A stretch of DNA of 64,000 nucleotides, from positions 1,860,001 to 1,924,000 of the forward strand of contig NZ_PTJC01000005.1 of assembly GCF_002934605.1 (NCBI RefSeq), written 5' to 3'. Both the position numbers and the translations under genes were made by a program. This document shows, one piece after another, positions 333 through 15,600 of the stretch (positions are counted from its first letter, which is position 1; each line of letters opens with the position of its first letter). The notes beneath the pieces were generated by a model, which was given only the letters and a program-made list of their open reading frames with translations, did no database searches and had not been told where the DNA came from. This DNA comes from Neolewinella xylanilytica. GTDB lineage: Bacteria; Bacteroidota; Bacteroidia; Chitinophagales; Saprospiraceae.

Positions 333-851
333 ATGGTCTTCAAAACTACCCGCCGGGATACCCCCGCCGTGCACGCCGGCTCCATGGCCGACATTGCCTT
401 TTTGCTCTTGATCTTCTTCCTGGTCACTACGACGATCGATCAGGACAGCGGCATCATCATGAAACTCCCCGCCTGGGAGGCCAACCCGCCCACGACGCCG
501 ACTTCCGAGGTGCTTTCGGTGATCGTCAACGCCGACAACGCGATCATGGTGGAAGGGGAGCCCGCCGGGGTGGGGGAGTTGCCGCGGCTACTCGAGCAGT
601 ACGTCCTGGACCCGCGGCGCACCCCGCGGCAGGCCGTCGTAAGTCTGGTACATGACCGGAACACGGATTACCGCCACTACCTCGAAGTTTACGACGGTCT
701 GCTGAGCGGTTACCGACGGCTATGGGATGCGGCCGGTCACTCGGATTACGGCGATAACTATGAAGCATTAGGGGAAGCGCAAAAGCAGCGGATTCGCCAG
801 CAATTCCCTATGGTGATCAGCGAGGCGGAGCCCAGTGACATCAGGGATTGA
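333..851 (+). CDS. ExbD/TolR-family biopolymer transport protein
   Basis: The product has 172 residues. One N-terminal transmembrane segment (about residues 17-36) carries the motif MADIAFLLLIFFLVTTT, whose Asp20 matches the proton-path aspartate of ExbD/TolR proteins. A periplasmic domain follows. In this family ExbD works with ExbB and TonB to transmit proton-motive force to outer-membrane receptors. No exbB or tonB is visible in the window. The ATG at 333 was chosen because the conserved basic N-terminus (MVFKTTRR) starts there; the longer frame from 180 reads through the end of the preceding gene. Its 3' end overlaps the convergent ion-channel gene by 11 bases. Confidence 0.85.
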   Translation: MVFKTTRRDTPAVHAGSMADIAFLLLIFFLVTTTIDQDSGIIMKLPAWEANPPTTPTSEVLSVIVNADNAIMVEGEPAGVGELPRLLEQYVLDPRRTPRQAVVSLVHDRNTDYRHYLEVYDGLLSGYRRLWDAAGHSDYGDNYEALGEAQKQRIRQQFPMVISEAEPSDIRD

Positions 852-1659
852 GCCGCCCCCCGCAGTATTTGCAGTAAATCGCATCCGCGGCGTGCCCTTC
901 CCGGGCGCAAAAGCGGCATACCTGGGTGCTGACTTCACTTTGTTTATTGGTGTTAATGATCTCGTTCGTGACGATGCCCGTAGGTACCGCGATGATGGCG
1001 TAGCCGAGAATCATGACGATGGCGGAAAGGAACTGTCCGATCTGGGTCTGGGGGGTAATATCGCCGTAGCCCACGGTCGTGATCGTCACGATCGCCCAGT
1101 ATACGGCCCGCGGAATCGACGAGAACCCCTCGTTTCCACCCCCCTCGATCAGGTACATCAATGACCCGATAATGATCACGAGGATGGTCACGGAAAAGAG
1201 AAATACGGCGATCTTGTTTCGGCTGGCGACCAGCGCCCGCCGCAGTTGATCGCCTTCGCTGAGGTACTGGCCGAGTTTGAAAATCCGGAAGACCCGCATT
1301 AGCCGTAGAATCCGGATGATCAGGAAGTATTGGGCGTTGGGCAGCACTAGGGTGAGGTAGGAGGGGAGGATGGCCAGCACGTCCACGATACCGTAAAAGC
1401 TGAGGGCGTACTGCAACGGGCGAATCGTGACCCACAGCCGCAGCACGTATTCGATGGTAAAGATGATCGTCAGGAACCACTCAGTGTACCAAAAGAAAGC
1501 ACCGTACTGCTCGTTATAGTCTTCGGAGCTCTCCAGCATCACGATGATGATGGAGAAGGTAATCAAGCCCAGCAGCACCACGTCGAAGAGCTTCCCCGCC
1601 GGCGTATCCGCCTCGAAAATGATTTCGTGGATACGTTGGCGCAGGCTCTGGTCGGACAT
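841..1659 (-). CDS. Voltage-gated-type (six-TM) potassium/ion channel with C-terminal zinc-ribbon-like tail
   Basis: The product has 272 residues from the ATG at 1659; upstream codons in the frame lie in the preceding gene. Six hydrophobic segments are visible. There is an S4-like arginine-rich stretch (residues 116-128, RILRLMRVFRIFK) and a pore filter TTVGYGD (194-200), which is the potassium-selective signature. The tail carries Cys248, Cys251, Cys263 and Cys266 in a CxxC...CxxC arrangement, consistent with a small zinc ribbon in the cytoplasm. It lies 47 bases downstream of the histidine kinase on the same strand, so it may share its transcript. Potassium selectivity is inferred from the filter; the ligand or voltage response is not known. 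Confidence 0.88.
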   Translation of the reverse strand: MSDQSLRQRIHEIIFEADTPAGKLFDVVLLGLITFSIIIVMLESSEDYNEQYGAFFWYTEWFLTIIFTIEYVLRLWVTIRPLQYALSFYGIVDVLAILPSYLTLVLPNAQYFLIIRILRLMRVFRIFKLGQYLSEGDQLRRALVASRNKIAVFLFSVTILVIIIGSLMYLIEGGGNEGFSSIPRAVYWAIVTITTVGYGDITPQTQIGQFLSAIVMILGYAIIAVPTGIVTNEIINTNKQSEVSTQVCRFCAREGHAADAIYCKYCGGRLNP

Positions 1660-1706: not shown

Positions 1707-3686
1707 TTATCCAAGGTTGTTGCGTCGGGGGATCATTTCGGTAATCGGGATCGTGACCCGCACCTGGGTGCCACAGGCCACTCCGTCGCGGTCGTACAGG
1801 TCGATGATCTCTACCCAATTTTGTTCCTCGCTGGAAAGCAGTTGCAGGCGCGACTCGGTAATTTCGGTGCCCCGGCTCTTGTGATCGACCCGAGTGGCAT
1901 CCTTCGCCTGCCGTTCCCGGACTTTTTCCCGGCCGACGCCGTTGTCCGTGACAATCCCCAAAAGGTGATGGTCGTCTTCGTCGATCACGCGGAATTCCAC
2001 CTCGATGTGTCCTTCCGACTGCCCCCGGAGGCCGTGCTCGATGGCGTTCTCCACGTAGGGTTGTAGGATCATCGTGGGGACGCCGATCACGTCCTCTTCC
2101 AGCTCCCGGTCCATCACGATGTGGAAGGTCAGGTTGCCCTCGTAACGGAGGTGCTGATTGATTTCGAGGTAGTCGGTCAGGAATCGGCGCTCCTCCTCGA
2201 GCGTAATGAATTCCCGATTGGCGTTTTCCAGGCTCTGCCGCATCAGCATGGCAAACTTAGCCAGGTGCTTACTGGCCGTGGCCGCGTTGTTGCCCGAGAT
2301 GAACATTTGGATGCTGTTCAGGGCGTTGTACATAAAGTGCGGATTCATCTGAGCCCGCAGCGCCCGTAGCTTCAGCTGGCTGGCCTTGAGTTTGAGCTGG
2401 CGGTTTTCCTGTTCGCGCTCCTCCGCCCGGAACTGGGCGGCGAACTGATGCTGGCGGAGGATGGCTACCTGTTGGTGGAAGCGGTGATTGTAACTGTCGT
2501 AGGTACAGTGGTAATTGTAGGCGGCCTCGTAGTACTTCAGTTTGGCGTGGCAAATGGACAGGTGCAGATAGGCATCGGCGACGAGGCTGAGCAGGTCGGG
2601 GTCGTTGGTATCCTCGTCGACTTCCGCGAGCGTTAGGATGCGGTTCAACTGATTGATGGACATCTCCCATTCCGCTGAATCCATCAGCAAGGTAGCCCGC
2701 ATGAACTCCAGCTTGGCCAGTTCCTTTCGGTCGGGCTCGTCGTCACCGCTGTAGAGCGCTTCGGCCCGGTCGACGTATTCGTTGGCTAAGTCCGGACTAT
2801 CCAGGTAGTGATAACAGAAACCGAGATTGGCGTAGGCGGCCGCCAAGGCGTTCACCGAACCGTTGGCCTTGGTGTCGACTACCGCCCGGAAGTAGGTCAC
2901 GGCCTCCTCGTACTTGTTTAGGTACATGAGCTCTTTGCCGAGGTTAAGCTGATGCCAGGGTAGCCGGGAGCGCAGGCCGATCAGCTCACAGCGGTCGATG
3001 GCCCGCTGAAAGGCGGCCAGGGCTAGTTCGTTCTCGCCGCTATTCTGGTAAACGGAGCCGAGTCCGGACTGGGTAAGGCTGTAGTAGTAGTGGTCCTGGG
3101 GCGTTAGTTCGAAGGAGCCCCCTTCGAGCAGCCGTTCGGCTTCGAGGAATTTGAGGGTAGCCTTCGGGTAGCTGAAGATCAGGAGGTAAAGGTAACCGTG
3201 GCGGCAGGCCGTGCGGGCGACGTATTGGTCGCTGGGATAGCTCTCCAGAAGGCGCTGGCAACGGTCGAGGTAGTCGATCGCCTGTTCGGTAAGCCCCTGG
3301 TTGCCGAGGTAGGCGATATACGTAAGGTATGCCTCTAGTTTGTCGGCCGCATCGCCACGTTCTTCGACGATAGACAGGGCGGTGGCAAAAGGTGCCGCGG
3401 CGTGCTCGAGGCGGTATTCCTGGTTCTCTAGAGTAGCGAGCGTGAGAAAATAATGCAGCCGGTAGTCATTTCCGGTAATGTCTTCCAGTTGCAGCAGGTC
3501 TTTTGCGTGTTTCTGCAGCAGTTGTGCCTGCTTCGCGAGCAACACCCGGGCCCGATCGGGGCGGGTATAGACGTAGTGATGTAGCAGCGAGTGAATGATC
3601 TCGATTACTTCGAGGCCATCCGACGCCTTCTCAAGGGATAATTCCAGTTTGCCCAGCGCCGAGCTGTGTCCGTATCGGTCTACCAT
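1707..3686 (-). CDS. TPR-containing sensor histidine kinase (LytS/His_kinase family), no membrane segment
   Basis: The product has 659 residues. Residues ~1-400 are helical repeats, with at least four recognisable TPR units (about 118-147, 200-235, 245-272, 283-312 and 370-400). A coiled coil follows (~405-445), then a His_kinase domain with the phosphoacceptor motif QMNPHFMYNALN (His450) and an HATPase region with PYVENAIEHGL (Asn547) and DNGVGRE. No signal peptide or transmembrane helix is visible, so it should sense a cytoplasmic cue. Its partner is almost certainly the LytTR regulator at 4036-4797. A 49-residue GG-leader peptide gene ends 30 bases before its ATG, which suggests the peptide and kinase are co-transcribed. 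The ion channel follows after 47 bases. Confidence 0.9.
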   Translation of the reverse strand: MVDRYGHSSALGKLELSLEKASDGLEVIEIIHSLLHHYVYTRPDRARVLLAKQAQLLQKHAKDLLQLEDITGNDYRLHYFLTLATLENQEYRLEHAAAPFATALSIVEERGDAADKLEAYLTYIAYLGNQGLTEQAIDYLDRCQRLLESYPSDQYVARTACRHGYLYLLIFSYPKATLKFLEAERLLEGGSFELTPQDHYYYSLTQSGLGSVYQNSGENELALAAFQRAIDRCELIGLRSRLPWHQLNLGKELMYLNKYEEAVTYFRAVVDTKANGSVNALAAAYANLGFCYHYLDSPDLANEYVDRAEALYSGDDEPDRKELAKLEFMRATLLMDSAEWEMSINQLNRILTLAEVDEDTNDPDLLSLVADAYLHLSICHAKLKYYEAAYNYHCTYDSYNHRFHQQVAILRQHQFAAQFRAEEREQENRQLKLKASQLKLRALRAQMNPHFMYNALNSIQMFISGNNAATASKHLAKFAMLMRQSLENANREFITLEEERRFLTDYLEINQHLRYEGNLTFHIVMDRELEEDVIGVPTMILQPYVENAIEHGLRGQSEGHIEVEFRVIDEDDHHLLGIVTDNGVGREKVRERQAKDATRVDHKSRGTEITESRLQLLSSEEQNWVEIIDLYDRDGVACGTQVRVTIPITEMIPRRNNLG

Positions 3687-3716
3687 GAAAGGGCGGGCTG
3701 TAACCGGTTCGCTGGA

Positions 3717-3866
3717 TTATTGGGGCATTATGCCTCCGCAAACCCGACGCGAATAGGGGCCTCGACGCTTTCCTCCGGTAACCTGATCCATGGTGTCGCG
3801 ATCCAGTTGCTTAAGCTGGTTGTCCTTCAGAAGTTCCTCGATGGTTTTTTTCCCGGTCTGAGCCAT
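3717..3866 (-). CDS. Small double-glycine leader peptide (RiPP/bacteriocin-type precursor candidate)
   Basis: This 49-codon frame runs from ATG at 3866 to TAA at 3717, between the response regulator and kinase genes. It starts MAQTGKKTIEELLKDNQL and continues with the leader-like segment LDRDTMDQVTGGK. That segment fits the double-glycine leaders of Bacteroidota natural-product precursors: an amphipathic acidic helix ending with a hydrophobic residue, x, then GG. Cleavage after Gly32 would release a 17-residue basic peptide, KRRGPYSRRVCGGIMPQ, with one cysteine. A TACATTTG promoter-like box lies 67 bases upstream, and the kinase ATG is 30 bases downstream. No modification enzyme or C39 peptidase transporter is in the window. 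The leader resemblance is seen directly; expression and signalling role are inference. Confidence 0.6.
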   Translation of the reverse strand: MAQTGKKTIEELLKDNQLKQLDRDTMDQVTGGKRRGPYSRRVCGGIMPQ

Positions 3867-3933
3867 GGATGGAATACTTGACGTGAATAGTTGTTGCTGA
3901 TTTCCGGTGGTATGGTACAGGTCACCAACGTTT

Positions 3934-3941
3934 CAAATGTA
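3934..3941 (-). promoter_or_regulatory. -7 box (TACATTTG) for the peptide-kinase genes
   Basis: This is an exact match to the Bacteroidota -7 consensus TAnnTTTG in the 169-base gap between the response regulator stop and the peptide ATG. No clear -33 TTG partner is seen. It would give a leader of about 60 bases. Confidence 0.45.
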
Positions 3942-4035
3942 AGAATTATATCGGTGGCTTCCCTTTTTTTTGATTTTCGTGCCGGGTTGCCGTTGATTGC
4001 CCCATCAGGGTGGTTCGGACGCACGACCGAAGGCG

Positions 4036-4797
4036 TCATAATTCTTGCATGAAACGCAGCTGGCTCATGAAGGCCGACCTTCGCCGGCGGCTTACCTCGA
4101 TCCGCATACCATCGTCCATGATCAGATAACCGCCCTCGCCCTTCACGAATTTCTTCATGTAATTCATGTTGATGACATGCCGCTTGTGTACCCGGTAGAA
4201 GTTGTGGGGCGCCAGCATGTCTTCGTACATTTTGATGGTTTTGGAGGCAGTGATGCGCTGCCCGTCCGCCATGTAGATATGGGTATAATTGTCTTCGGCC
4301 TCGAAGCGGATGATGTCCGGTATCCGGATAAAGTGGTAGCCATCTACGGCCCCGATTGGCATGCGGTCGTACACATTAGGCTGTTTCTGGTATAGCTGGA
4401 AGGCGTCGAGGCGCTCCTGGGTGCGGGCCTGGCCGCGGGGCCGGATCCGAGCTACGGCATCGACGAGCCGGTCGGGGTCAATTGGTTTCAGGATGTAGCC
4501 GATGGCCGAATAGTCGAATGCCCGCATGGCAAACTGATCGTAGGCCGTCACGAAAACGATGTCGAAATTGATCGGTTTGATCCGATCGAGCATCTGGAAG
4601 ACTTTGCCGTCGCCGAGGTTGATATCCAGGAAGGCAATGTCAGGCCGGATGTCGTCGCGGCCGAAGAGCGCACACCCGGATTCGACCCCGTCAGCTTCGC
4701 CGATCACTTCCACGTCGGGGCAGTGCAGGTTCAGCATTTGTTTCAGGTTGACGAGGCCCTTGCGTTCGTCTTCTACGATAACGGCATTTAGTAGCAT
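4036..4797 (-). CDS. LytTR-family response regulator
   Basis: The product has 253 residues. An N-terminal receiver domain carries the acidic pair near Glu9/Asp10, the phosphoacceptor Asp58 in AFLDINLGDG, Thr84 and Lys104 (YILKPIDP). A LytTR DNA-binding domain (about residues 145-250) follows, with FEAEDNYTHIYMADGQ and FYRVHKRHVINMNYMKKF. Such regulators bind direct repeats as dimers and are usually paired with His_kinase-family sensors such as the one at 1707-3686. The gene starts 93 bases after lptC ends and has its own TAAATTTG box. A peptide gene separates it from the kinase, which is unusual for this pair. Confidence 0.93.
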   Translation of the reverse strand: MLLNAVIVEDERKGLVNLKQMLNLHCPDVEVIGEADGVESGCALFGRDDIRPDIAFLDINLGDGKVFQMLDRIKPINFDIVFVTAYDQFAMRAFDYSAIGYILKPIDPDRLVDAVARIRPRGQARTQERLDAFQLYQKQPNVYDRMPIGAVDGYHFIRIPDIIRFEAEDNYTHIYMADGQRITASKTIKMYEDMLAPHNFYRVHKRHVINMNYMKKFVKGEGGYLIMDDGMRIEVSRRRRSAFMSQLRFMQEL

Positions 4798-4815
4798 AGC
4801 TGAGGATCAGTTGAC

Positions 4816-4823
4816 CAAATTTA
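4816..4823 (-). promoter_or_regulatory. -7 box (TAAATTTG) for the LytTR regulator
   Basis: This is an exact TAnnTTTG match 18 bases upstream of the regulator ATG, giving a very short leader. It suggests the regulator can be transcribed independently of lptC. Confidence 0.5.
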
Positions 4824-4890
4824 CGAAATCACGCTTAGGGATAAGGCCATCCGCCCGTGAATTTCCCAATAATTTCGGTCGGTATCCGGG

Positions 4891-5448
4891 CTACCGTTCC
4901 TCCACGGGGCGGTTGACCGGGATTCGCCCGTCTACCTCCAGTACCCGTGCATTGGTGAAGGAGGGGTCGCTTTCCAGTCCGTACCCGGTAATGATGTAGT
5001 CGGGCTGGGTAAGCACGACGAACTTATTGGTATAGATCAATTCCCGCGACTCATCCCAGTTGAGCTCTTCCGTTTCCAGCCGCTGTTGGTCCTTGGATTC
5101 CCAGACAACACTGTCGCGAACCGTAATAACATTGCTCCTGCGGCGGTACACGCCCTGCTTAGCGGTCAGGGTGCTGGTGGTATCCTGCAGTTCATCGAGA
5201 AAAAAAGCAACGATTCCGTCCGGGAACTCCTGCCGGGGATCGCTCGGCGACAGGTAATTGTACATGGCCGGCGCCTCTAGGATCAGCCGGACGCGGGCGG
5301 AGTCGCTCCAGAGCACCTGGACGCCCGTCGCCAGTTCCACCTCGTCGTCGAGCGCCGCCTCCAGCCGGGCTACTTCGGCGGGGTCATTGACGCAACCGGT
5401 AGTCAGGGCCGCGATGCAAAGCAGGAAAAGTAGGTGCCTCAGCCCCAC
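4891..5448 (-). CDS. lptC: LPS export protein LptC-like lipoprotein
   Basis: The product has 185 residues. It has a lipoprotein signal peptide with lipobox LTTGC (Cys19), so it should be membrane-anchored. The rest is predicted beta strand and fits the LptC/OstA-like fold (for example DSARVRLILEAPAMYNYL, then LTAKQGVYRRRSNVITVRDS and WDESRELIYTNKFVVLTQPD). LptC passes lipopolysaccharide from the inner-membrane LptBFG complex to LptA. The start overlaps the end of the upstream small membrane protein by 10 bases, indicating an operon with it and probably with the foldase gene. The lipidated form is common in Bacteroidota; E. coli LptC uses a membrane helix instead. Confidence 0.85.
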   Translation of the reverse strand: MGLRHLLFLLCIAALTTGCVNDPAEVARLEAALDDEVELATGVQVLWSDSARVRLILEAPAMYNYLSPSDPRQEFPDGIVAFFLDELQDTTSTLTAKQGVYRRRSNVITVRDSVVWESKDQQRLETEELNWDESRELIYTNKFVVLTQPDYIITGYGLESDPSFTNARVLEVDGRIPVNRPVEER

Positions 5449-5621
5449 AGGCCCCGCATGCCGTTGATCAGGGTGCCGTACAGCTCCGGGTCCTCGGGTA
5501 CGAAAGCCTGGTTGGCTTTGTAGAGATAAATAACGAGGACTACGAAGAGCAGAAAGGCGACAACGCCACCCATGATCACGTATCCCTTTATTCCCGCGTG
5601 TTTGATTTCGTCAGACATCAA
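5439..5621 (-). CDS. Small single-pass membrane protein of unknown function
   Basis: The product has 60 residues, or 59 if the second Met is used. A charged N-terminus (SDEIKHAGIKG) is followed by one strong hydrophobic segment (about residues 15-34) and a short C-terminal tail ending GMRGLWG. It overlaps the lptC start by 10 bases and lies 27 bases downstream of the foldase gene, so it is probably translated as part of that operon. No family is recognised. The position suggests an envelope role, which is inference. Confidence 0.65.
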   Translation of the reverse strand: MMSDEIKHAGIKGYVIMGGVVAFLLFVVLVIYLYKANQAFVPEDPELYGTLINGMRGLWG

Positions 5622-5648
5622 TAATTTATTTAGATACTAAACGGGCGT

Positions 5649-7802
5649 TTAGCGTAAAGTACTACACTCGGTGCTGATCCGCTGATCTTCGATCTCTATT
5701 TCGGTGCGTAAGCCCGTGATCAACTGCTGCGCGACGCGGCTGCGATTGGTCGCGTTCATCGCTTGCCGAGCGGCGGGTACGCTGCCGCTGCTTCCGGACG
5801 GAGCGTCCGACAACGGTTTGACGAGGTATACCCCCCGCTCGCCCACGATAGGTTCGCTTACCGTTCCGGTAGACAGGGTCGAGGCCACGGCAATGACCTT
5901 GGGCTCGGCACCGATGCCCTGGGCGAGAGACTGCTGGGTAAAGGTGACTCCGTTGAGGGTGTCCACGACTACATCATATTGGGATGCAGCGGCCGCCAGG
6001 TCCAGTCCACTCATAGCCTCCGCCAACTGACGCCCCTTAAGTTGGTTGCGGACGTCAGGCAGAATGCTCTCCCGCACCGCTTCTACCGGTGCTACGCCTT
6101 CCGGGATGATGTTCTCCACCCCGGCGATCAGGTAGCGGTTCTCGTAAAAGAAGTTGGGGTCGGTGAAGGTATAGACGAAACCACTTACGTCGCCTTCGTC
6201 GGCCCCGAAGGCCCAGCAGATCAGGTCGCGGACGTCCTGTCCGCCGCCGATACCGGGTAGCTGGAAGGTGCCAATGTCCAGGGGACGGGTAGTTTCCACC
6301 GTGAGTCCCTCGGCTTCGGCGGCTGCTTTCACTTCTTCTAGACTGCCTTTACCGGTCAGGAATTCCTCCGCCCGTTGGCGGATAGCGTCTTCGGTGTCTT
6401 TACTGGGCACCATGGGTTCGGATACGTAGGCTACTTTGGCGCGGGTCTCCGTCGCATCGCTACGGCTGGTGATCTGCAGCAGTTGTACACCGTCCTGGGT
6501 GCGTATTTTGTACCAGGTTCCCGGTTCTCCCGTCACAAAGGCGACGCGTTCCGCGGCTGGTTCTATCTGGCCCGGCGTGACGTTTTCCAGTACCCCGGCG
6601 GTAGCGATTGTGCGGCTGTCGCGATTGAATTCCTCGGCCAGTTCGCTGAAGGTGGCATCGTCTTCCCGCACTACGGTCAGCAGGCTGTCGATGAGGCGGT
6701 TGGCTTCCGAAAACTGGGCGGGGATCGTCGCATTCCGCTTAATCCGACGGATTGCCACGTTCTCCGGGTATTCCCGCCGGTCGATCAATTTTACCAGCGC
6801 CATCAGGGATCCTTCCACGAAGGGACCGTATACCTCGCCGATTTCCAGATCGTTCATGATCGTACCGGCTACCGAGGCGGGCAGCTGATCTTCGGTCACG
6901 TAGGCACCCGTAAAGGAGCCGTTGGCCGTGAGGGCGAACAAGCTGTCTCCGCGGGCGGGCGTGTTCCGCCATTCGGTTGCCAGGCCTTCCAGGGTGGAAC
7001 GCACCGCGGCGGAATCTTCCGGTGTAGCGTCTACGGAGAAGCTGAGGTAAGTAAGTTGCCGGGTTTCCTCCAGGTTGTCAAAGGTGCTGCGGCGGTCGTC
7101 GATGTACTGCTGCAAGTCGGTGTCGCTGACGGTAACGGCGTCGTTGTCCAATTCGTCGAAGGGAACGCGAACGATCGCGACCCGGCGGCTGGCGGTCATC
7201 GCGTCGGCGTATTCCTGGGCCATCCACTCGGGGGCGTACATGGCCTTCGATACCAGGGCGGTAAGTTTTTCCTGCAGGCGTTGGCTGCTTACCCGACGAT
7301 TCTGGTAGCGCCAGATGTCAACGAAGTTGGGGGGCAGCTCTCCAGCCTCGATGCCTTCGGTGATGCTGTTCTCCTGAATCCGGCTGCGCACGCTGTTCAA
7401 CAGCTGCGCGTTCACCTGTCCGGTCTGGGGATCGCCGTAGTTCTGTTGAATAACCGGGCTGTAGCGGGGACCGTAGGTGAGCTCTTCCAGCTCCGGTTGG
7501 GTCACTTCCAGTCCAAGCCGTTCGGTCTCGTTACGAATGAGGCCCTCGGTGAGGTAATAATTCCACAGGTTGCTGCGGCTCTCGTAAGCGTCGGCCGAAG
7601 TGTTGGTCACGGCCAGGGTACGCTCGAAGTCGTTGCGCTCGATCTCAATTTCGCCGACGCGGGCCATCATGGCCTCCACCGGACCGATCGGGCCGCTGCT
7701 GCCGCTGTTCATGATGTCGGAAAGGACGAAAAGGGCGATACCGCCGCCGATAAAGAGCAGTACGACGAGCGGGTTGTTTCTAATTTTGCCAATGAGTGCC
7801 AT
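5649..7802 (-). CDS. PpiD/SurA-type membrane-anchored peptidylprolyl isomerase
   Basis: The product has 717 residues. It has an N-terminal signal-anchor (about residues 12-30, VVLLFIGGGIALFVLSDI) and a SurA_N-like chaperone region (about 45-260, including VGEIEIERNDFERTL). A parvulin-like segment lies around 330-460, with repeated weaker homology to ~640. The arrangement matches PpiD-like foldases that sit in the inner membrane facing the periplasm and assist outer-membrane protein folding. Whether the isomerase site is active cannot be judged by eye. The start is supported by a TTTTTG-N16-TATCTTCG promoter just upstream. It is the first gene of a run leading into lptC. Confidence 0.88.
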   Translation of the reverse strand: MALIGKIRNNPLVVLLFIGGGIALFVLSDIMNSGSSGPIGPVEAMMARVGEIEIERNDFERTLAVTNTSADAYESRSNLWNYYLTEGLIRNETERLGLEVTQPELEELTYGPRYSPVIQQNYGDPQTGQVNAQLLNSVRSRIQENSITEGIEAGELPPNFVDIWRYQNRRVSSQRLQEKLTALVSKAMYAPEWMAQEYADAMTASRRVAIVRVPFDELDNDAVTVSDTDLQQYIDDRRSTFDNLEETRQLTYLSFSVDATPEDSAAVRSTLEGLATEWRNTPARGDSLFALTANGSFTGAYVTEDQLPASVAGTIMNDLEIGEVYGPFVEGSLMALVKLIDRREYPENVAIRRIKRNATIPAQFSEANRLIDSLLTVVREDDATFSELAEEFNRDSRTIATAGVLENVTPGQIEPAAERVAFVTGEPGTWYKIRTQDGVQLLQITSRSDATETRAKVAYVSEPMVPSKDTEDAIRQRAEEFLTGKGSLEEVKAAAEAEGLTVETTRPLDIGTFQLPGIGGGQDVRDLICWAFGADEGDVSGFVYTFTDPNFFYENRYLIAGVENIIPEGVAPVEAVRESILPDVRNQLKGRQLAEAMSGLDLAAAASQYDVVVDTLNGVTFTQQSLAQGIGAEPKVIAVASTLSTGTVSEPIVGERGVYLVKPLSDAPSGSSGSVPAARQAMNATNRSRVAQQLITGLRTEIEIEDQRISTECSTLR

Positions 7803-7844
7803 AGGGAACTTCTAAGTTTTACCGTCTGCATGTGGAACGGGGCG

Positions 7845-7874
7845 CGAAGATACTAATTATTGTTCGGTCAAAAA
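7845..7874 (-). promoter_or_regulatory. Promoter of the foldase-lptC run
   Basis: On the minus strand a TTTTTG (-33 type, 7869-7874) is followed after 16 bases by TATCTTCG (7845-7852), one base from the TAnnTTTG consensus. The ATG is 42 bases downstream. Confidence 0.5.
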
Positions 7875-7912
7875 GGTCCGCTCTCCGGCGAAGGCGGTAG
7901 GAAGGATATCGG

Positions 7913-8491
7913 TCAGAAGTCGAGTAATCGCTCGTATACCATATCCACCGGCAGGCCCATGATCGTCGGATAGGTGCCTTCGATCCGCCGGATCTTCGCC
8001 AGTCCGATCCATTCCTGAATGGCGTAGGCCCCCGCTTTGTCGTAGGGCCGGTACCGGTCTACGTAAGCCACGATTTCTTCCGGGCGAACGGTATTCATGT
8101 AGACGTAGGCCGTACTACTGAAGACGAGCTGTTTCCGGGTGGATTGCAGGCAACACCCCGTAACGACGGTGTGCCGGTTGCCGGACAAACGGCTTAGGAT
8201 TTCGATGGCATGCGCGCGGTCACGCGGTTTGCCTAAAATTTCGTCACCCAGAATGACCACGCTGTCGGCCGTGAGCAGCACTTCGTTGTCCGCCCGGAGC
8301 AGGTGCCGGGCTCCTTCCGCTTTGAGGCGAGCGAGATAGGGGGCGACTTCCAGCACCGGCGTCTCCGGCGGATACACTTCTTCAACCTCAGCGGTTCGGA
8401 TGGTGAACGGGATGCCTGCCTGCTCGAGCAGGTAGCTGCGGCGGGGTGATTTGCTGGCCAGGACCAGCGATACGTCAGGGGGCAAAAGCAT
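7913..8491 (-). CDS. Maf-like nucleotide pyrophosphatase
   Basis: The product has 192 residues, the usual Maf length. The N-terminal motif LASKSPRRSYLLEQAGIPF is the Maf signature, and LLTADSVVILGDEILGKP contains the conserved acidic active-site region. Family members hydrolyse non-canonical or modified nucleoside triphosphates to monophosphates and pyrophosphate, preventing their incorporation. The start codon overlaps the stop of the upstream sugar isomerase gene (TGATG), so the two are translationally coupled. The exact substrate (dTTP/UTP-like or m7GTP-like) is not assigned. Confidence 0.9.
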   Translation of the reverse strand: MLLPPDVSLVLASKSPRRSYLLEQAGIPFTIRTAEVEEVYPPETPVLEVAPYLARLKAEGARHLLRADNEVLLTADSVVILGDEILGKPRDRAHAIEILSRLSGNRHTVVTGCCLQSTRKQLVFSSTAYVYMNTVRPEEIVAYVDRYRPYDKAGAYAIQEWIGLAKIRRIEGTYPTIMGLPVDMVYERLLDF

Positions 8492-9069
8492 CAGGACGGG
8501 GTTTGGCCAAAAAGGATGCGCTCCACGTCTTCACAAAGAATGTGACCCAAGAGCAGGTGCCCTTCCTGGATCCGTGGCGTATCCGTGCTGGGAATATTGA
8601 TGAGGATATCGACCAGGTGGCCCAGTTCGCCTCCTCCGGCGCCGGTCATTCCCACCAGCGTACATCCGGCCCGTTTGCCGGCCACTGCGGCTGCCAGTAC
8701 ATTCCGGCTGTTTCCACTGGTGCTGATGAGGAAAAGGACGTCTCCGGAGCGGCCCATGGCCGTAGTGAGCCGGGAAAAAGCGTGATCGTAGCCGTAGTCG
8801 TTGGCTACAGCGGTGAGGAAGCTGGTATTGACGTGCATGGCCTCCGCAAAGAGGGGCGGGCGGTCCAGGTAGAAGCGGCCACTCAGTTCGGCGGCCAGGT
8901 GTTGGGCGTCGGCCGCCGAGCCACCGTTCCCACAGAAAAGCACTTTCCCCCCCCGTTGGAAGGTGGCCACGCAGGCTTCCGTAGCGGTTTGTAAGCGGCG
9001 TAGTAGCGCTTCGTCCGCAAGGATCCGTTGCTTGACGACAATGGCGGCCCGAATTCTTTCGTATGGCAT
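8491..9069 (-). CDS. gmhA: Phosphoheptose isomerase-like SIS protein (GmhA family)
   Basis: The product has 192 residues from the ATG at 9069. The SIS domain shows GGKVLFCGNGGSAADAQHLA and FLISTSGNSRNV, matching GmhA, which converts sedoheptulose 7-phosphate to D-glycero-D-manno-heptose 7-phosphate for LPS heptose or S-layer sugars. The C-terminal segment with RIQEGHLLLGHILCEDVE fits the same family. An alternative ATG at 9096 exists but lies inside a strong hairpin (9088-9115), so 9069 is preferred; its N-terminus also lines up better with GmhA. It is followed by the coupled maf-like gene. DiaA-like SIS proteins are the main alternative. Confidence 0.85.
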   Translation of the reverse strand: MPYERIRAAIVVKQRILADEALLRRLQTATEACVATFQRGGKVLFCGNGGSAADAQHLAAELSGRFYLDRPPLFAEAMHVNTSFLTAVANDYGYDHAFSRLTTAMGRSGDVLFLISTSGNSRNVLAAAVAGKRAGCTLVGMTGAGGGELGHLVDILINIPSTDTPRIQEGHLLLGHILCEDVERILFGQTPS

Positions 9070-9087
9070 GCGATGAGGTAAAATGAT

Positions 9088-9115
9088 CAGGGCCACGCCG
9101 GGGAGGCGTGGCCCT
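9088..9115. terminator. 12-bp inverted repeat between the 1071-residue giant and gmhA
   Basis: Arms CAGGGCCACGCC (9088-9099) and GGCGTGGCCCTG (9104-9115) form a perfect stem with a 4-base loop, 33 bases after the stop of the upstream giant gene. It is probably that gene's terminator. No long T tract follows. Confidence 0.6.
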
Positions 9116-9123
9116 GAAGGTCA

Positions 9124-9131
9124 CAAAGCTA
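9124..9131 (-). promoter_or_regulatory. -7 box (TAGCTTTG) for gmhA-maf
   Basis: This exact TAnnTTTG match lies between the stop of the giant gene and the hairpin at 9088-9115. Transcription from it would start next to the hairpin, placing the hairpin in the gmhA leader. Confidence 0.4.
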
Positions 9132-9147
9132 CGAATTGCCTGAGCGA

Positions 9148-12100
9148 TTACATCTTCACGAAGGCCCGCACGGATTCGCGATCGCCTTCGATCACTTGTA
9201 CCCGGTACATGCCCCGCGGCAGATCGATAACGTCAACGCGGGCGTGCAGGAGATTGGCATCCTTGTTGAACTGGAGTTCGCGGATCTGCCGTCCGTTCAT
9301 ATCCAATAGCCGCAAGTTCACCTCTCCCACGAAGGCACTAGTTACATCGAGGCTGAAGGCGTCGACCGTCGGGTTGGGGTAAACCTCCACGATGGATTCC
9401 GCGTCCATCTCCAGGGTGGCTTCCGGGCTGGAATCGCCGGTACTGCTCTTCGGTAATTTCATCATCATCGTCATGTCGGTGCTGCTGCTACAGTTCTCGG
9501 ACACCGGACCGTTGCCGGAAGGAAGGCGGTCGTTAAGCGACAGCAGGAGCTTATCGAAGCCGGTTCGGGTTTCCCGATTCGCGATGGTAATGGTGTGCTT
9601 ACCGGTAGACAGGTTGAAATCGATGTCCTTGCCGTCGTGGTTCACCTTACGCCATTCGAATCCGCGGGTGAGGAGGGGGGCGCCGCCGATTTCCTCCCAC
9701 ATTTTTACCCAGTTGCCATTATCGATGCGTACCCAGACGGAATTACTTCCTACGTCCGGTGCATTCAAGCGCAAAAAGAGATGGTACGTTCCGGGGGTGG
9801 AAACGGAGACTTCGTACCGGAGCATTTGGGAAGCGTCATTGGCCGGAGCAGAGCCGATGTAGGCATTGCTCGTATTAATCAGGTAGCTACCGTTGGATGC
9901 ATCGGAATCCGTGGCTCTTTCCCACTTGTCGCCGATCGATCCGCATTCCGCTTCCTGTACCAGGTCGGTATAGGTCGGCGTCGTACGCTCACCGCAATTA
10001 ATCGCCGACTCACCCTTCCCGGAGGGTAGCTTGCCGTCCATGTTCAGGTGAATGCGATCCAGGCGCGCGCCGTCTTCGCGGAAGGTAAAGTCGATGGTAT
10101 TGGTCCCTTTATTCAAGGTGAGGTTCAGCCCCTTGGCTTCGTTCCACTTGAAGCCAACTTTGGCCTGGATATTTTCGTACCAGCGGAACCAATTTCCGCC
10201 GTTCACCCGTACCCAGAATGAATCGTCTCCGTAGGTATCGGCCGAGATCCGCCCGAAAAGGTGGTACTTGCCGGCTTCGGTGATGTCGAAGGTAAAGCGC
10301 AGGTGATTGTCAGGGTTTTCGTGGGGTGGGCCGTTCAGGGCTTCCCGTCCGTAGAGTACCGCGTACTTTCCGTTGACCGCATCCGAAGAATTTTCGATCG
10401 TCCAGCGACCGCCTACCGTGGCACATTCGGCCTCCATCCAGAAACTAGCCGGATCGGAAGAGTTCGTCGGTGGTGGGCTGGATTCTTCATTGTCATCCTC
10501 TGCCACGGGCTCGTCGGTCGTACCGCTACCACAGTTACTGGCCGTTTCCCCCATACCGGACGGAGAGGTGCCGATGCCGGAAAGGAAGATTTTATCCAGT
10601 TTTGCGTCCGCTTCCCGGAAAGCGAAGTCGATGGTGTTCACCCCGTCTTTCAGAATCAGCTGATCCGGGTATTGGTTCCAGGCGAATTTGCCGTAGTCCG
10701 TGAGTACGCCGGCCCACCGCAACCATTTTCCGTCGTTCAGGCGGATCCAGTAGGAGTCGCTCGTCCAGTCAAGCCCGGAAATGCGTGCATAGAGCGTAAA
10801 GAGTTTGCTGCCGTCGCTGTTCAGCTTGAACCGGACCCGGTTCGCTGCTACGTCGTTCGGAGCGCTCTTCATCGAGTTGTTGGCGGATACGACGTAGGAG
10901 CCGTTCGAGGCGCTTTTGTTGGTGTATGTTTTCCAGCGGTCGCCTACAACGGCGCATTCGGCTTCCAGCCACACTTCGTTCGCTTCTTTCGAAACGGAGG
11001 TGTTGTTGTCGCAGTTGATGCCCGCCAGGCCTTTGTTGCTGGGCCGGTCGGTAGTGGAAGTCAGAAAGATTTTGTCCAAGCGTGCATCCGCTTCGCGGTA
11101 GGCGAAGTCGAGGATGTTCTCTCCTTCCTTCAGTCGAATCTTATTGTCGAACTTGTTCCATTCGAACTTTCCGTTTGACTTGATACCGGTAAACCACTCC
11201 ATCCAGGTTCCGCCGTTGACCCGCACCCAGTACGAATCGCTGGCCAGGCTGGCGGAGGAAATACGGGCGAAGACATTCACGAGCTGGGAGTTCGGGCTAT
11301 CGAACTTGAACCGGATGCGGTTGGCGGCATTATCCGCCGGCGTCCGCTCGGAAGAATTCTCCGTGGGAACCACGTAGTACCCTCCGGCCGCGTCGTCGTC
11401 GCTCACCAGGCTCCACTTCGTGCCGATCTCGGCACATTCCGGTTCGAACCAGAAGGCGTCGATACCGTGGCCGGTGGGGGGCTCCACTACCATGGTGTAG
11501 CGGTCGGTGGACTTCGCACCGAAATCATCGGTAACCGTAAGCAACACGTTGTAAGTGCCTTCTTTTTCAAAGGTTATGGCCGGGGTTGGCCCGGAAGCCG
11601 CACCGCCTTCCCAGCTCCAGTTGTAATCGACGATCTCGCCGTCGACGTCGTAGGATTTCAGGGCGTCGAACTCCACCGTCAGGGGAGCGTGACCGCTTTC
11701 CACGCTGTTGGTGAAATTGCCTACCGGGATTTCATTGTTGTAGGCATAGGTGGCGCAGTCGAACAGGTTCGGGCGTACCTCGACGATGCTCTGCCGCGAG
11801 CACTTGCTGCCACCCGACAGCACGTAAATACCGGGGGTGCTTACCACCGGGTTCTGCTCGTTGGACGTGAAGCCTTTGGGCCCCTTCCACCGGTAGACAC
11901 CGGTCGAGGTCTCTCCCCGTAGCATCACCTTTCCGCTGGCACAACCCAGGATACGGGCTAGGTAATCCGCGGAAGCCTGTGCAGAACAGATCAGCGAGGT
12001 ATCGTCGATGTGCAGGGTGAAGTCGACCGTCGATTCCTTGCCGTTTTCGTCCGTGCCGGTTACCCGGATCTCGTAGGTCTTGGACGCCTCCTCGGAGGGA

Positions 12101-12363
12101 GCATTGATCCGAAAGGTCCCGGAGTTGTTATCCAGGGTTATCCAGGAGGGTAAGGCACTCCCATTGGAAAGCCGCGCCTCGTAATCCAGTGCCGGGCCCT
12201 TCGCGAAGGATCCGTTGATTACGAAGGTGGTAGCAATGTTGGCCGGGGCCGTAAGCGGATGAACCGGCGATACATCGGCGGGAGCTGCGGTGAGAGCGGT
12301 AGCTGAAAGCGTGAGGCATACCAGAAGCCAAGCGGTAAGTAGCCGCGTTAAGCGTAGAGCCAT
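9148..12363 (-). CDS. T9SS-secreted multidomain surface protein A (1071 residues)
   Basis: The signal peptide is about residues 1-27. Domains in order: putative Ig/cadherin-like (31-121, LPSWITLDNNSGTF), SprB-like Ig (124-203, YRWKGPKGFTSNEQNPVV), PKD (211-296), then four ~150-residue EAEC modules (303-451, 464-611, 641-790, 801-958). The last module is a variant with a longer GFEWRKVNHDG segment. The end (about 985-1071) is a T9SS type A sorting domain with VYPNPTVDAFSLDV, closing with AFVKM. It should be exported by T9SS and anchored at the cell surface. It is the shortest of four related giants and resembles the larger ones with their N-terminal parts removed. Sugar binding by the EAEC modules is inferred from their beta-sandwich look and the company of malectin domains in paralogues. 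Confidence 0.9.
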   Translation of the reverse strand: MALRLTRLLTAWLLVCLTLSATALTAAPADVSPVHPLTAPANIATTFVINGSFAKGPALDYEARLSNGSALPSWITLDNNSGTFRINAPSEEASKTYEIRVTGTDENGKESTVDFTLHIDDTSLICSAQASADYLARILGCASGKVMLRGETSTGVYRWKGPKGFTSNEQNPVVSTPGIYVLSGGSKCSRQSIVEVRPNLFDCATYAYNNEIPVGNFTNSVESGHAPLTVEFDALKSYDVDGEIVDYNWSWEGGAASGPTPAITFEKEGTYNVLLTVTDDFGAKSTDRYTMVVEPPTGHGIDAFWFEPECAEIGTKWSLVSDDDAAGGYYVVPTENSSERTPADNAANRIRFKFDSPNSQLVNVFARISSASLASDSYWVRVNGGTWMEWFTGIKSNGKFEWNKFDNKIRLKEGENILDFAYREADARLDKIFLTSTTDRPSNKGLAGINCDNNTSVSKEANEVWLEAECAVVGDRWKTYTNKSASNGSYVVSANNSMKSAPNDVAANRVRFKLNSDGSKLFTLYARISGLDWTSDSYWIRLNDGKWLRWAGVLTDYGKFAWNQYPDQLILKDGVNTIDFAFREADAKLDKIFLSGIGTSPSGMGETASNCGSGTTDEPVAEDDNEESSPPPTNSSDPASFWMEAECATVGGRWTIENSSDAVNGKYAVLYGREALNGPPHENPDNHLRFTFDITEAGKYHLFGRISADTYGDDSFWVRVNGGNWFRWYENIQAKVGFKWNEAKGLNLTLNKGTNTIDFTFREDGARLDRIHLNMDGKLPSGKGESAINCGERTTPTYTDLVQEAECGSIGDKWERATDSDASNGSYLINTSNAYIGSAPANDASQMLRYEVSVSTPGTYHLFLRLNAPDVGSNSVWVRIDNGNWVKMWEEIGGAPLLTRGFEWRKVNHDGKDIDFNLSTGKHTITIANRETRTGFDKLLLSLNDRLPSGNGPVSENCSSSTDMTMMMKLPKSSTGDSSPEATLEMDAESIVEVYPNPTVDAFSLDVTSAFVGEVNLRLLDMNGRQIRELQFNKDANLLHARVDVIDLPRGMYRVQVIEGDRESVRAFVKM
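9490..11457 (-). repeat. Array of four EAEC...NC modules in protein A
   Basis: Copies are at 11011-11457, 10531-10974, 9994-10443 and 9490-9963. Each begins with an E-x-E-C core, has SDSYWVRVNGG-like and READARLDKI-like motifs, and ends with NC. The bracketing cysteines suggest a disulfide tying the ends of each module. Confidence 0.8.
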
Positions 12364-12404
12364 AATGTTGGTTTATTTAAAAGCAAATTCCAGGAAAAGC
12401 GCTG

Positions 12405-12412
12405 CGAATATA
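12405..12412 (-). promoter_or_regulatory. -7 box (TATATTCG) for protein A
   Basis: This is one base from TAnnTTTG, 41 bases upstream of the ATG. No -33 element is evident. Confidence 0.3.
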
Positions 12413-12482
12413 GAAGCATTAACGGCGGGACCGGGGCCCGGAGTACCGCCGGCAACGTTAAACTTTGCCAGCTACGTACTAT

Positions 12483-12537
12483 CGAGGCCGCCCCAGCGGG
12501 GATCACCCTCCGCGGGGAAGGTGATTTGCGGGCCTCG
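12483..12537. terminator. Imperfect inverted repeat downstream of protein B
   Basis: Arms CGAGGCCGC and GCGGGCCTCG (one bulge) enclose an inner ATCACC/GGTGAT pair. It lies about 110 bases beyond the stop of protein B in the 285-base gap before protein A. No T tract is seen, so the terminator role is tentative. The rest of the gap holds only a weak promoter box for protein A. Confidence 0.35.
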
Positions 12538-12648
12538 GTAGCGGTTAGATGTTTCAGAGCGCTTATAATTTAACTTGGTGATTCAAGGTTGATATACAGG
12601 GGGTGGGCGGCGAGCGCGGGTGCCATGCCGCCGGAAAAAGGATTGCGG

Positions 12649-15600
12649 TTATCGTTTAATAAAGGGCAGTACGGTCGGCAGTCCGCTACCCACGACCCGT
12701 ACGTGATACATTCCGGGGGCCAGATGCCCGACGTCGATCGGGACATTCAGCTGCTGGCCGGGTTTTTCCCTTTGGAGCTTCGCTACCGTTCGGCCGTTCA
12801 CGTCGAAAATGGTCAGGTCGACCCACCCGACATAGGGGGCCGCGTAACGGAGATTCAGCTCATCTCCGACCGGGTTAGGAAACACTTCCAACGACCCGGG
12901 CGTCTCCTGCAGCTTTTGGGCTACCGGCTCCCGATCGGGGGTAAATCGCATGAGTTGGGCGGAAGCACAATTCGTAGCGGCGGTACCCTCTCCCACCGGA
13001 AGGGTCGGAGAAAGGGATAATTTAAGCTTATCAAGCATGGTTCCCGATTCGCGGTTGGCCACTTCGATGGTATGCTGGCCAACCCCTAAGGAAAAGGTCA
13101 GGTCTACGCCATCGTCGTTGACTTTGCGCCATTCGAATCCGTTGGTGATCAGCTTCTCGTCCCCCACCTCTTTCCACATCTCGATCCAGCTGTAGTCGTC
13201 CACCTTGATCCACAGGGAATTCTTGCCAAAATCAGGAGCGCTTAACCGGAGGAACAGGTGGTAGTCTCCTGCGGTGGCAATGTCGAAGGAGTAGGCCGCC
13301 CGCTCGTCCGCCGGAGCGGTGCGGGGGTCCTCAATATTGCGCGTTCCGTTGTAAACGATGTAGGTACCATTGGATGCCCCGCCGCCAGAAACGGTGGACC
13401 ATCCCGCGCCAACGTCGCCACACTCGATTTCCAGCCACTGGTCGGAACCGTCGTCCGCCACGTCTTCGCAGCTGTCGTCTACCCCACCTAAGCCCTGGGG
13501 TACCGTGGTGGCGGTGGTGAGGAAAAGCTTGTCGAGTTGGGTGCCGTCTTCCCGGTAAGCAATGTCGATGGTGTTCGTGCCCTCCCGCAGGTTTACGGTG
13601 CCCCGGGGGTATTCGCGCCAGACGAAACCGTCGTCGCCGGATAAACCGCGGCTCCAGGAATACCAGCTACCTCCGTTGACGCGGAGGTAGAAGGAGTCGT
13701 CGAGCCCGGAGGCGGCCAGCACGCGGGCAAAGAGGCGGTAGGAACCCGCCGCAGACGTATTGACCGAGAAGCGGATACGATTGGATGCGACGTCCGTAGG
13801 AGGGGAGTTGTAGGAATTTCCGGATTTCACGACGACGTAGCTACCATTGGACGCTGCACCTGCTGCCCCGACGCTCCACTTGGAACCCACGATCGCGCAT
13901 TCGGCTTCCAACCAGAACTCGTTTTCGCCGGCCGCCGGCTCCGCGGTCACGGCTACGTTCACGACTTTCGAGGCCGTTGCGCCGTCGTCGTCCTTTACCG
14001 TGAGCGTGATGGCATAGTTGCCTGCCCCGAGCGTCACTACTTGCTGTTTGCCGCTACCGCTTCCACCCGACCACTTCCAGTTATAGGAAACGATGGATCC
14101 GTCCGGGTCGGTGGAGGTGCCGCCGTCGAGGGTCAGCGTCAGTGGCGCCACGCCGGAGGTGGCCGATGCGGTGGCGCGGGCTACCGGGGGCTGATTGGCA
14201 ACCGTACCGCAGTTGCCGGCCGCTTCGCCCTGGCCGGTGGGCAGGGTATTTAGCCGCGAAATGAGGAGTTTGTCTAATTGGGTACCCGCCTCCCGAAAAG
14301 CGAAATCGATGGTGTTCGTTCCCTCCTTCAGCGAGGGAAAACTGTTGCCGGAGTAGAGATTCCACTGGAAACCGGTTCCCGGGTCGATATCCCTTTTCCA
14401 TTCAAACCACGACTGTCCGTTTACCCGTACCCAGTAGGAATCGGAATTCACGTCCGGTGACAGCACGCGGGCGAGCAGGTAGTAAGGCCCCTGCTCTACG
14501 TCGTTGATGGTGAACCGGACGCGGTTGGCGGGCACGTCTTCCGGCCGGCTGCCGGTGGAGCTCTTCTCGGAAACGACATATTTTCCGCCGGAAGCGGCGC
14601 CACTGTTGGCGGTTATCCAGTTGCTGCCCACGCTGGCGCATTCGGCTTCCAGCCAGAAGTTTGTCGCGCGTGGAACGGGCTCCGGATTCACCGTAATGGT
14701 CACTACGTCCGTGGCGGATTTTCCCCGGTTGTCGCGTACGGTGAGGGTGATTTTGTAAGTGCCTTCGTCGAGAACCAGTTCCGGCGTCGGACCGGCGGCG
14801 GTGTTACCCGGCCAAGTCCAGGCATATTCGACGATGCTGCCGTCCGGGTCCCGGGATGCGGTAGCGTCCAGGGTTACCGTCAGGGGCGCATCGCCCGTTA
14901 ACGTGCTGGCGGAGGCATCCGCTACGGGAGCGGTATTACTAGCAGTACCGCTTTCGCAGTTTGGATCGGCGAATACCTCCACGACGCTGATGCGGTCGCA
15001 GTTGCTGCCGGCGGCGAGCTTATAAATACCCGGCTTACTGACCGTCGGTTGTTGTGCCGTGCTGGTAAAGCCGTTGGGGCCGGACCAGCGGTAGGTGCCC
15101 GTGGAGGTAAATCCGCTGAGGCGAACCCGGCCATCGGTGCAATCCAGGACCTTGCCGGTGCCGGAGGTATTGGCATTGACCGAACAGGAAAGCGCGGCGT
15201 TGTCCACCACCAGGGCGAAGGTCGCACGGGCGGTCAGTCCATTGTAGTCTTTAGCCGTCACCTCGATCTCGTAGAGATTGCCTACGGCTCCGGAGGGGGC
15301 TACCATAGCGAAGGTGCCGGTCGTTTTATCAAATTTTACCCAGGTGGGTAGGGTGCCACCTCCGGCCAGGGACGCCGAGTAGGTGAAGGCGTTGCCGGGG
15401 TAGCCCCGGTCGAAAGCACCGTTGACGGTCATTTCCGCCGGCTTTCCTGCCTGTACGGTAAGGTTCGGAATTTCAAGACCGGTAGGTACGCCCTCGGGCC
15501 GCGCATTGATGATGTAGATGGCGTTATCGTTCCAGTCGCAGTTGGAAGAGCCCTCGCCACAGCCCGTCCCGATGTAATCCATCAGGGCAATGTATTCGTT

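What the first reader, a model, noticed from the sequence alone, without database searches (positions are those of the whole stretch)
3717..3866. Unlisted GG-leader peptide between a LytTR regulator and a TPR histidine kinase
The 49-codon frame encodes a leader ending LDRDTMDQVTGGK and a 17-residue basic core with one cysteine. It sits between the two genes of a two-component pair, 30 bases before the kinase. In Firmicutes, double-glycine peptides plus LytTR regulators (ComC/D/E) and TPR receptors (RRNPP) form quorum-sensing circuits. Here the kinase itself is a soluble TPR protein, which would suit sensing of an imported or internal peptide. I know of no described Bacteroidota circuit of this form.
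Basis: partly seen in the sequence, partly recalled or inferred. Interest (0 to 1): 0.78.

Follow-up and report, generated by a model that had tools for sequence, protein, structure and literature searches.

The report
Conserved GG-leader peptide with sensor kinase
In one family of Bacteroidota bacteria, a tiny gene for what looks like an exported peptide has been kept between a gene regulator and a cell-interior sensor whose predicted shape resembles known peptide receptors, which suggests a peptide signalling switch that we did not find described for this phylum.

Summary
The 49-codon frame (3866-3717, minus strand) is a real gene: in the genus (21 genomes, own included) it is present in all 17 whose regulator and following stretch are assembled; pN/pS is 0.17. 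In the family 83 of 199 genomes match at E<=1e-3. In 73 loci the LytTR regulator is upstream in 69, the TPR kinase downstream in 63, both in 59. In 77 aligned peptides GG and the second-last P are invariant, though two family members outside this set lack that P.

An unlinked C39-peptidase ABC/HlyD exporter follows the peptide: 81 of 83 peptide genomes have a strong C39 domain against 35 of 116 others. In the genus the two near-complete genomes without the module also lack this exporter. By hydropathy the kinase is soluble; the best PDB match of its model is RapF-PhrF, other peptide-binding TPR proteins being almost level. A K+ channel gene lies near the module in 42 of 73 loci.

Most likely C39 cuts and exports the peptide, and its conserved C-terminus is read by the TPR kinase, which drives the regulator. 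Export, binding and cell-to-cell use are inferred.

The parts
3717..3866 (-). GG-leader precursor peptide gene, 49 aa; leader 3866-3771 (residues 1-32, ends GG), predicted core 3770-3720 (17 aa KRRGPYSRRVCGGIMPQ), stop 3719-3717
4036..4797 (-). LytTR response regulator (receiver + LytTR DNA-binding), upstream partner
   Evidence: PF00072, PF04397; upstream of the peptide in 69 of 73 loci
1707..3686 (-). Soluble TPR histidine kinase: TPR superhelix about 3686-2427, LytS-type kinase part about 2396-1707; no membrane segment by hydropathy
   Evidence: downstream of the peptide in 63 of 73 loci
3934..3941 (-). TACATTTG, a match to the Bacteroidota TAnnTTTG promoter element, 75 nt before the peptide start codon
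   Evidence: such a box in 40 of 68 regulator-peptide gaps against 12.5 +/- 2.9 in shuffles
841..1659 (-). K+ channel-like protein (PF00520, TVGYGD filter, zinc-ribbon-like C-terminus by eye), recurring neighbour of the module; start at 1659 more likely than the listed 1818
   Evidence: near the module in 42 of 73 loci, in two arrangements

Best explanation
A peptide-sensing two-component module. The small gene makes a double-glycine precursor from its own promoter (promoter box shown, transcription inferred). An unlinked C39-peptidase ABC exporter with an HlyD-type partner (in this genome on contig C2 at 1979535-1981691 and just behind it) cuts after GG and moves the basic core with the conserved free end (C-G-G-I-x-P-Q) out of the cytoplasm (co-occurrence shown, cutting and export inferred). 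The mature peptide, or a C-terminal piece of it, comes back into the cytoplasm and docks by its free C-terminus in the Rap-like TPR superhelix of the soluble kinase (fold predicted, import and binding inferred), which then changes phosphorylation of the LytTR regulator (pairing inferred from conserved adjacency). The regulator acts on the peptide promoter and probably on the neighbouring K+ channel gene (inferred). It would thus work like ComCDE in leader, exporter and regulator, and like Rap/Phr in reception.
For: Conservation and purifying selection. Order: regulator upstream in 69, kinase downstream in 63, both in 59 of 73 loci. In 77 aligned peptides (73 distinct): GG 77, second-last P 77, last Q 72, I/V at -4 in 69, M/L at -7 in 71, L/I/V/M at -12 in 75 of 76; in the 12 divergent peptides found by position behind the regulator, not by the profile, second-last P in 12 and GG in 10. 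Weak matches (E<=1) of members to double-glycine families: TIGR04149 15 of 32 (best 2e-4), TIGR01847 9 of 32, ComC 1 of 32. Exporter: C39 at E<1e-25 in 81 of 83 peptide genomes against 35 of 116 others; the specific type by genus 49 of 51 against 18 of 61; missing in the genus exactly in G013 and G019, which also lack regulator ortholog, peptide and kinase; G029 keeps regulator and kinase but has neither peptide nor a C39 hit. The leader matches once in the own genome at E<=10. No membrane segment in 60 kinases: one 19-residue window above 1.6, inside the ATPase part of L110. Foldseek top hit RapF-PhrF; profile hits Rap3T 8.7e-9, RapF 2e-7. R162, R241 and W244 are among the invariant residues of the TPR part in 56 kinases. 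RapF holds the Phr C-terminal carboxylate by an Arg (passages of PMC3601957). Bacteroides C39-type peptides are cut after GG with Lys first (passages of PMC6671954); K follows GG in 61 of 77 here.
Against: No binding, export or expression data; no importer was looked for. The C-terminus hardly varies between genera, unlike private pheromones (recalled). Two genomes (L181, L186) keep the C-terminal end but have no GG. Two members outside the alignment lack the second-last P: L235 (ends GGILNQ) and L036 of G200 (ends GGIIKQ). 10 of 73 loci show no kinase and 4 no regulator next to the peptide (some lie near contig ends). One of the 83 peptide genomes, G405, has only a generic GG leader with another core (L195). 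Eight peptide genomes lack the specific exporter type at E<=1e-110: six of them have a C39 domain (in G399 a copy cut by the contig end, closer to this type), two (G493, G517) none detected. By TM-score LGN complexes fit the model better than RapF (0.77 against 0.58, target-normalised), so the Rap likeness is not exclusive. Some genomes have other GG-leader peptides, in G437 one about 750 nt from a C39 fragment (L203), so the exporter need not be dedicated. The profile-found peptides are selected for likeness, which inflates GG conservation.
Confidence: 0.5

Rival explanations
1. Internal reporter: the kinase reads the uncut or cytoplasmic peptide before export, so the module measures export capacity or envelope/energy state of the cell itself, not neighbours.
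For: Kinase without membrane segment; C-terminus nearly the same over 43 genera, as fits an internal ligand; the C-terminal end is kept in two genomes without GG; no importer needed; a K+ channel neighbour would fit a membrane-state circuit.
Against: Conserved GG and leader positions show selection for processing. Loss together with the exporter fits this rival as well as the main reading, so it does not decide.
Confidence: 0.22
2. The peptide is an exported effector (bacteriocin-like or other) whose production the regulator-kinase pair controls, while the kinase senses something else.
For: Core is short and basic; members match bacteriocin-type leader families weakly; four fetched solitary copies with the same kind of end lie away from the pair (L227-L230).
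Against: Apart from regulator, kinase and channel no ORF family of 110 aa or more recurs in over 22 of 73 loci (smaller genes, such as small immunity genes, were not counted); near-fixed C-terminus over 43 genera is unlike toxins (recalled); the kinase stays adjacent in 63 of 73 loci.
Confidence: 0.18
3. A small non-exported protein that modulates the kinase, with the GG only part of its fold.
For: Two genomes without GG keep the C-terminal end.
Against: GG with the -4, -7, -12 pattern, weak hits to GG families and the link with C39 exporters.
Confidence: 0.06
4. Chance frame, not a gene.
For: None found.
Against: pN/pS 0.17 and third-position divergence; 17 of 17 assembled places in the genus; matches in 83 of 199 family genomes.
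Confidence: 0.01

Closest known systems
ComC-ComD-ComE (with ComA) of streptococci (recalled)
   Same: Double-glycine precursor beside a kinase/LytTR-regulator pair; C39 exporter needed.
   Different: ComD is a membrane kinase; here the kinase is soluble with a TPR sensor, the exporter is unlinked, and the end of the peptide is conserved over genera.
RRNPP receptors, in particular Rap-Phr of Bacillus
   Same: Cytoplasmic TPR superhelix as putative peptide receptor, conserved peptide C-terminus; RapF-PhrF is the first Foldseek hit.
   Different: TPR part is fused to a histidine kinase; precursor has a GG leader instead of a Sec-type signal (recalled for Phr); phylum Bacteroidota. LGN-type TPRs fit as well.
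Bacteroidetocins (PMC6671954, passages)
   Same: GG leader, ABC exporter with double-glycine peptidase domain, Lys after GG.
   Different: Those are toxins with four cysteines in a four-gene region; here a regulator-kinase pair.
LytS/LytR-type two-component systems
   Same: PF06580 kinase and LytTR regulator pair.
   Different: LytS is a multi-pass membrane sensor (recalled); here a soluble TPR sensor.

Membership tests
Double-glycine (C39-processed) precursor peptides | GG at the leader end with hydrophobic residues at -4, -7, -12 (pattern recalled) | tested here: met
   GG 77/77; I/V at -4 in 69/77; M/L at -7 in 71/77; L/I/V/M at -12 in 75 of 76; window peptide V, M, L
Double-glycine (C39-processed) precursor peptides | Match to a curated GG-leader family | tested here: not met
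   the window peptide matches no GG-leader family (only XyeA, 13.1 bits against a cut-off of 33); 15 of 32 relatives match TIGR04149 weakly (best 2e-4); cut-offs were not shown there
Double-glycine (C39-processed) precursor peptides | C39 transporter in the genome | tested here: met
   two in the own genome; 81 of 83 peptide genomes of the family sample
Double-glycine (C39-processed) precursor peptides | Cleavage after GG and export | not testable with these tools
   needs mass spectrometry
ComCDE | LytTR response regulator | tested here: met
ComCDE | Polytopic membrane histidine kinase | tested here: not met
   no membrane segment by hydropathy in 60 kinases
ComCDE | Peptide activates the kinase from outside | not testable with these tools
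   needs bench work
RRNPP | Cytoplasmic TPR receptor | tested here: met
   (cytoplasmic by absence of a membrane segment)
RRNPP | Rap-type 3-helix bundle or HTH as output domain | tested here: not met
   output is a His_kinase/ATPase module; no HTH family matched
RRNPP | Strictly conserved Asn that holds the peptide backbone (RapF Asn227) | tested here: inconclusive
   N129, N248, N287 are 90% or more conserved, but no residue-level alignment to RapF was obtained
LytS/LytR | PF06580 kinase with LytTR regulator | tested here: met
LytS/LytR | Multi-pass membrane sensor of LytS | tested here: not met

The most novel reading that the evidence does not exclude
A peptide-communication system of Bacteroidota in which a C39-exported peptide returns to a soluble Rap-like TPR histidine kinase, joining the ComCDE output to the Rap/Phr mode of reception in one protein, and controlling a potassium channel.
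Probability: 0.33. Interest if true: 0.88.

Novelty: new variant of a known kind. Interest (0 to 1): 0.74.

Why it matters
Peptide signalling with an identified receptor is known mainly from Firmicutes (recalled). This module offers Bacteroidota a concrete, testable peptide-receptor pair, found in about half of the sampled genera of one family (51 of 112 at E<=1e-3), with a candidate exporter and a candidate target. A soluble kinase with a Rap-like sensor would join two textbook systems in one protein.

Tried and rejected
Chance frame: rejected. XyeA triceptide hit of the window peptide (E 0.083): rejected, 13.1 bits against a cut-off of 33; none of the six window proteins scanned is a radical-SAM protein; relatives' surroundings were not searched for one. 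Second GG (in CGG) as a second C39 site giving a tetrapeptide: not favoured, since its second G is kept in 62 of 77 only. LytTR operator: direct repeats of 8/9 or better at 21-nt spacing occur in 10 of 68 gaps, the highest count of spacings 12-35 (next 7 at 20), and three CGGT-like blocks at exact 21-nt steps stand in five congeners (L091-L095), but the repeated sequences differ between loci and none is clear in the window; left as a hint. Wider spread: 16 of the 18 matching genomes of 295 in the class and 9 of the 11 of 395 in the phylum are outside the family; the 12 distinct outside-family matches that I read are GG leaders with other, often cysteine-rich cores, or chance (L034 lies in a 192-aa frame without GG; L224 is a fragment); none had the conserved end. 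Leader-only loci: of 18 stretches fetched for them, C39-type ORFs were seen in two (L196 with six GG-leader ORFs and four C39-like ORFs, L203 with a fragment); L208 has an ABC-like match only. A residue-level comparison with RapF failed (only designed TPRs among the five shown). Counting by hand, 44 of 46 genomes with an exporter match of 695 bits or more have the peptide (E<=1e-3); that threshold was set after seeing the scores. Co-occurrence statistics are not corrected for phylogeny beyond collapse by genus and assume that searches drew the same 199 genomes, as their handles suggest. Literature: searches listed no description of this module, but one search listed 20 of 382 and 12 of 18 papers, and the library holds open PMC papers only.

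Full report
What is there. On the minus strand, in transcription order, lie a LytTR response regulator (4797-4036), a 49-aa peptide gene (3866-3717) and a 659-aa TPR histidine kinase (3686-1707), followed by a K+ channel-like gene (1659-841; TVGYGD). The peptide has a leader ending LDRDTMDQVTGG and a 17-residue core KRRGPYSRRVCGGIMPQ.

The peptide gene is real. A protein search in 60 whole genomes (own, 20 congeners, 39 others) found it in the own genome and in 16 congeners at 49-84% identity. Over the 21 genomes of the genus the regulator ortholog is present in 18 and the peptide in 17. In the eighteenth, G018, regulator and kinase fragments each sit at a contig end, so the place of the peptide is not assembled. 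The other three are G013 and G019, which lack regulator ortholog, peptide and kinase (G013 has a 37% regulator paralog), and G009, 55% complete. Thus 17 of 17 assembled places have it; in G007 the kinase is cut by the contig end. Third codon positions diverge 0.514 against 0.145 and 0.101; mean pN 0.124, pS 0.727 over 78 pairs of 13 loci, the 4 of 17 with a length difference being left out. The 13 named loci are 11 Lewinella or Neolewinella strains and two MAGs.

Spread. A profile of 15 peptides matched 90 of 199 family genomes at E<=0.1 (56 of 112 genera) and 83 at E<=1e-3 (51 genera); one of the 83, G405, is only a generic GG leader. In 73 loci (13 of the genus, 60 of other genera with E below 1e-6) the regulator is upstream in 69, the kinase downstream in 63, both in 59. 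Of 95 family genomes with a regulator at E<=1e-75, 80 have a peptide match at E<=1e-3. In the other 15, stretches behind the regulator hold a divergent GG peptide in ten (G035, G393, G395, G409, G412, G430, G486, G498, G500, G528), a peptide without GG ending RCGDLLPH in two (G413, G501), and none that I could see in G029, G397 and G444. Outside the family, among 295 genomes of the class and 395 of the phylum (overlapping draws), no match that I read had the conserved end.

Anatomy of the peptide. In 77 aligned members (73 distinct; one with a shortened start), GG is invariant, I/V stands at -4 in 69, M/L at -7 in 71, K follows GG in 61, the second-last residue is P in 77, the last Q in 72, and the Cys is kept in 62. 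These were found by likeness, which inflates conservation; in the 12 found by position P is second-last in 12 and GG present in 10. Exceptions to P: L235 (GGILNQ) and L036 of G200 (GGIIKQ). The leader is thus of the double-glycine kind, and a variable basic stretch links it to a nearly fixed free C-terminus. Member-by-member scans give weak matches to double-glycine families: TIGR04149 in 15 of 32 (best 2e-4), TIGR01847 in 9, ComC in 1. In the own genome the leader profile matches once at E<=10. Four of four second copies that I fetched from other genomes (L227-L230; not all second hits were fetched) carry GG and the same kind of end with no regulator or kinase of this type in the stretch, and G380 has two peptides in a row inside the module.

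Exporter. The own genome has two C39-ABC proteins on contig C2. One (1979535-1981691) has C39, membrane and ATPase domains and is followed by an HlyD-type gene. I fetched 20 C39 regions: two own, two congeneric copies of the other type (L170, L171), and 16 from other genera, chosen mostly from genomes with one C39 hit; all 16 match this protein better than the other one. The profile of this leader gives no match better than E 0.7 in the 20 stretches, some of which are cut by contig ends. A C39 domain at E<1e-25 is present in 81 of 83 peptide genomes and 35 of 116 others; the specific type at E<=1e-110 in 75 of 83 and 30 of 116, and by genus in 49 of 51 against 18 of 61. In the genus the ortholog (54% identity or more) is in 19 of 21 genomes and missing in G013 and G019. 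G029 (87% complete) has regulator and kinase directly next to each other without a peptide, and no C39 hit. Bacteroides peptides with such exporters are cut after GG with Lys first (passages of PMC6671954). Shared ancestry is not corrected for beyond the collapse by genus.

Receptor. By 19-residue hydropathy none of 60 full-length kinases (of 64 with the window; 4 incomplete ones left out) has a membrane segment; the one peak above 1.6 lies in the ATPase part of L110. AlphaFold2 gives mean pLDDT 89.5 and a TPR superhelix mostly above 90. The first PDB match by E-value is RapF with its PhrF peptide (1.1e-7), followed at once by LGN/Pins complexes and further Rap-pheromone complexes; NprR and Rap with CSF appear lower; by TM-score LGN fits better. 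A profile search gives Rap3T at 8.7e-9 and RapF at 2e-7, behind designed, kinesin and LGN TPRs. R162, G208, G210, R241 and W244 are among the residues invariant over 56 kinases. In RapF an Arg holds the carboxylate of the Phr C-terminus and an Asn the backbone (passages of PMC3601957); whether the invariant Arg residues here do the same is a guess. The kinase part resembles GanS (6swk).

Regulation. A TAnnTTTG box occurs in 40 of 68 regulator-peptide gaps (of 70; two under 60 nt left out) against a mean of 12.5, standard deviation 2.9 and maximum 22 in 200 shuffles; 30 of the 43 boxes lie 60-100 nt before the start codon, in the window at 3941-3934. Related species are not independent. The use of this element in the phylum is recalled; papers naming it were seen in a search listing only. 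So the peptide probably has its own promoter. Repeats at 21-nt spacing, as LytTR proteins use (recalled), are only a hint.

Channel. The K+ channel gene is within the fetched flanks in 42 of 73 loci: downstream on the same strand in 8, on the opposite strand upstream of the regulator in 34 (three of these 3-5 kb away); two other window neighbours (LptC, PPI) appear only in those 8. In a count of all ORF families of 110 aa or more it is the most frequent neighbour after regulator and kinase (38 loci, then 22, 21 and 18). This suggests a target or partner, though conserved neighbourhood alone could explain part of it.

Verdict. Peptide gene real: near certain. Double-glycine precursor cut by a C39 exporter: about 0.85. 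Ligand of the TPR kinase: about 0.6. Signal between cells: about 0.35. The sameness of the C-terminus speaks for an internal or family-wide signal rather than a private code. No description was seen in the listings of the searched library; two RRNPP surveys seen in passages deal with Firmicutes (PMC9765709; PMC10075063), and a survey of two-component quorum sensing seen in passages (PMC8895600) showed nothing of this form.

Noticed in passing
window 841-1659 (minus) and L083-L153: A K+ channel gene accompanies the module in 42 of 73 loci in two different arrangements.
   Followed up: partly
L091-L095, gap between regulator and peptide: Three CGGT-like blocks at exact 21-nt steps with unconserved spacers, downstream of the TAnnTTTG box.
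   Followed up: partly
L181 (1342-1515) and L186 (1348-1515): In one genus the peptide between regulator and kinase has no GG but keeps the conserved C-terminal end.
   Followed up: partly
L227-L230: Solitary GG peptides with the same CGGIxPQ-type end, without a regulator or kinase of this type in the fetched stretch.
   Followed up: partly
L196 (G325), 3450-16702: Six GG-leader peptides with other, mostly cysteine-rich cores lie among four C39-like ORFs, outside the family.
   Followed up: no
L104-L144, downstream of the kinase: A gene on the opposite strand, up to about 800 aa, recurs downstream in 22 of 73 loci; by eye it resembles penicillin-binding protein 1C.
   Followed up: no
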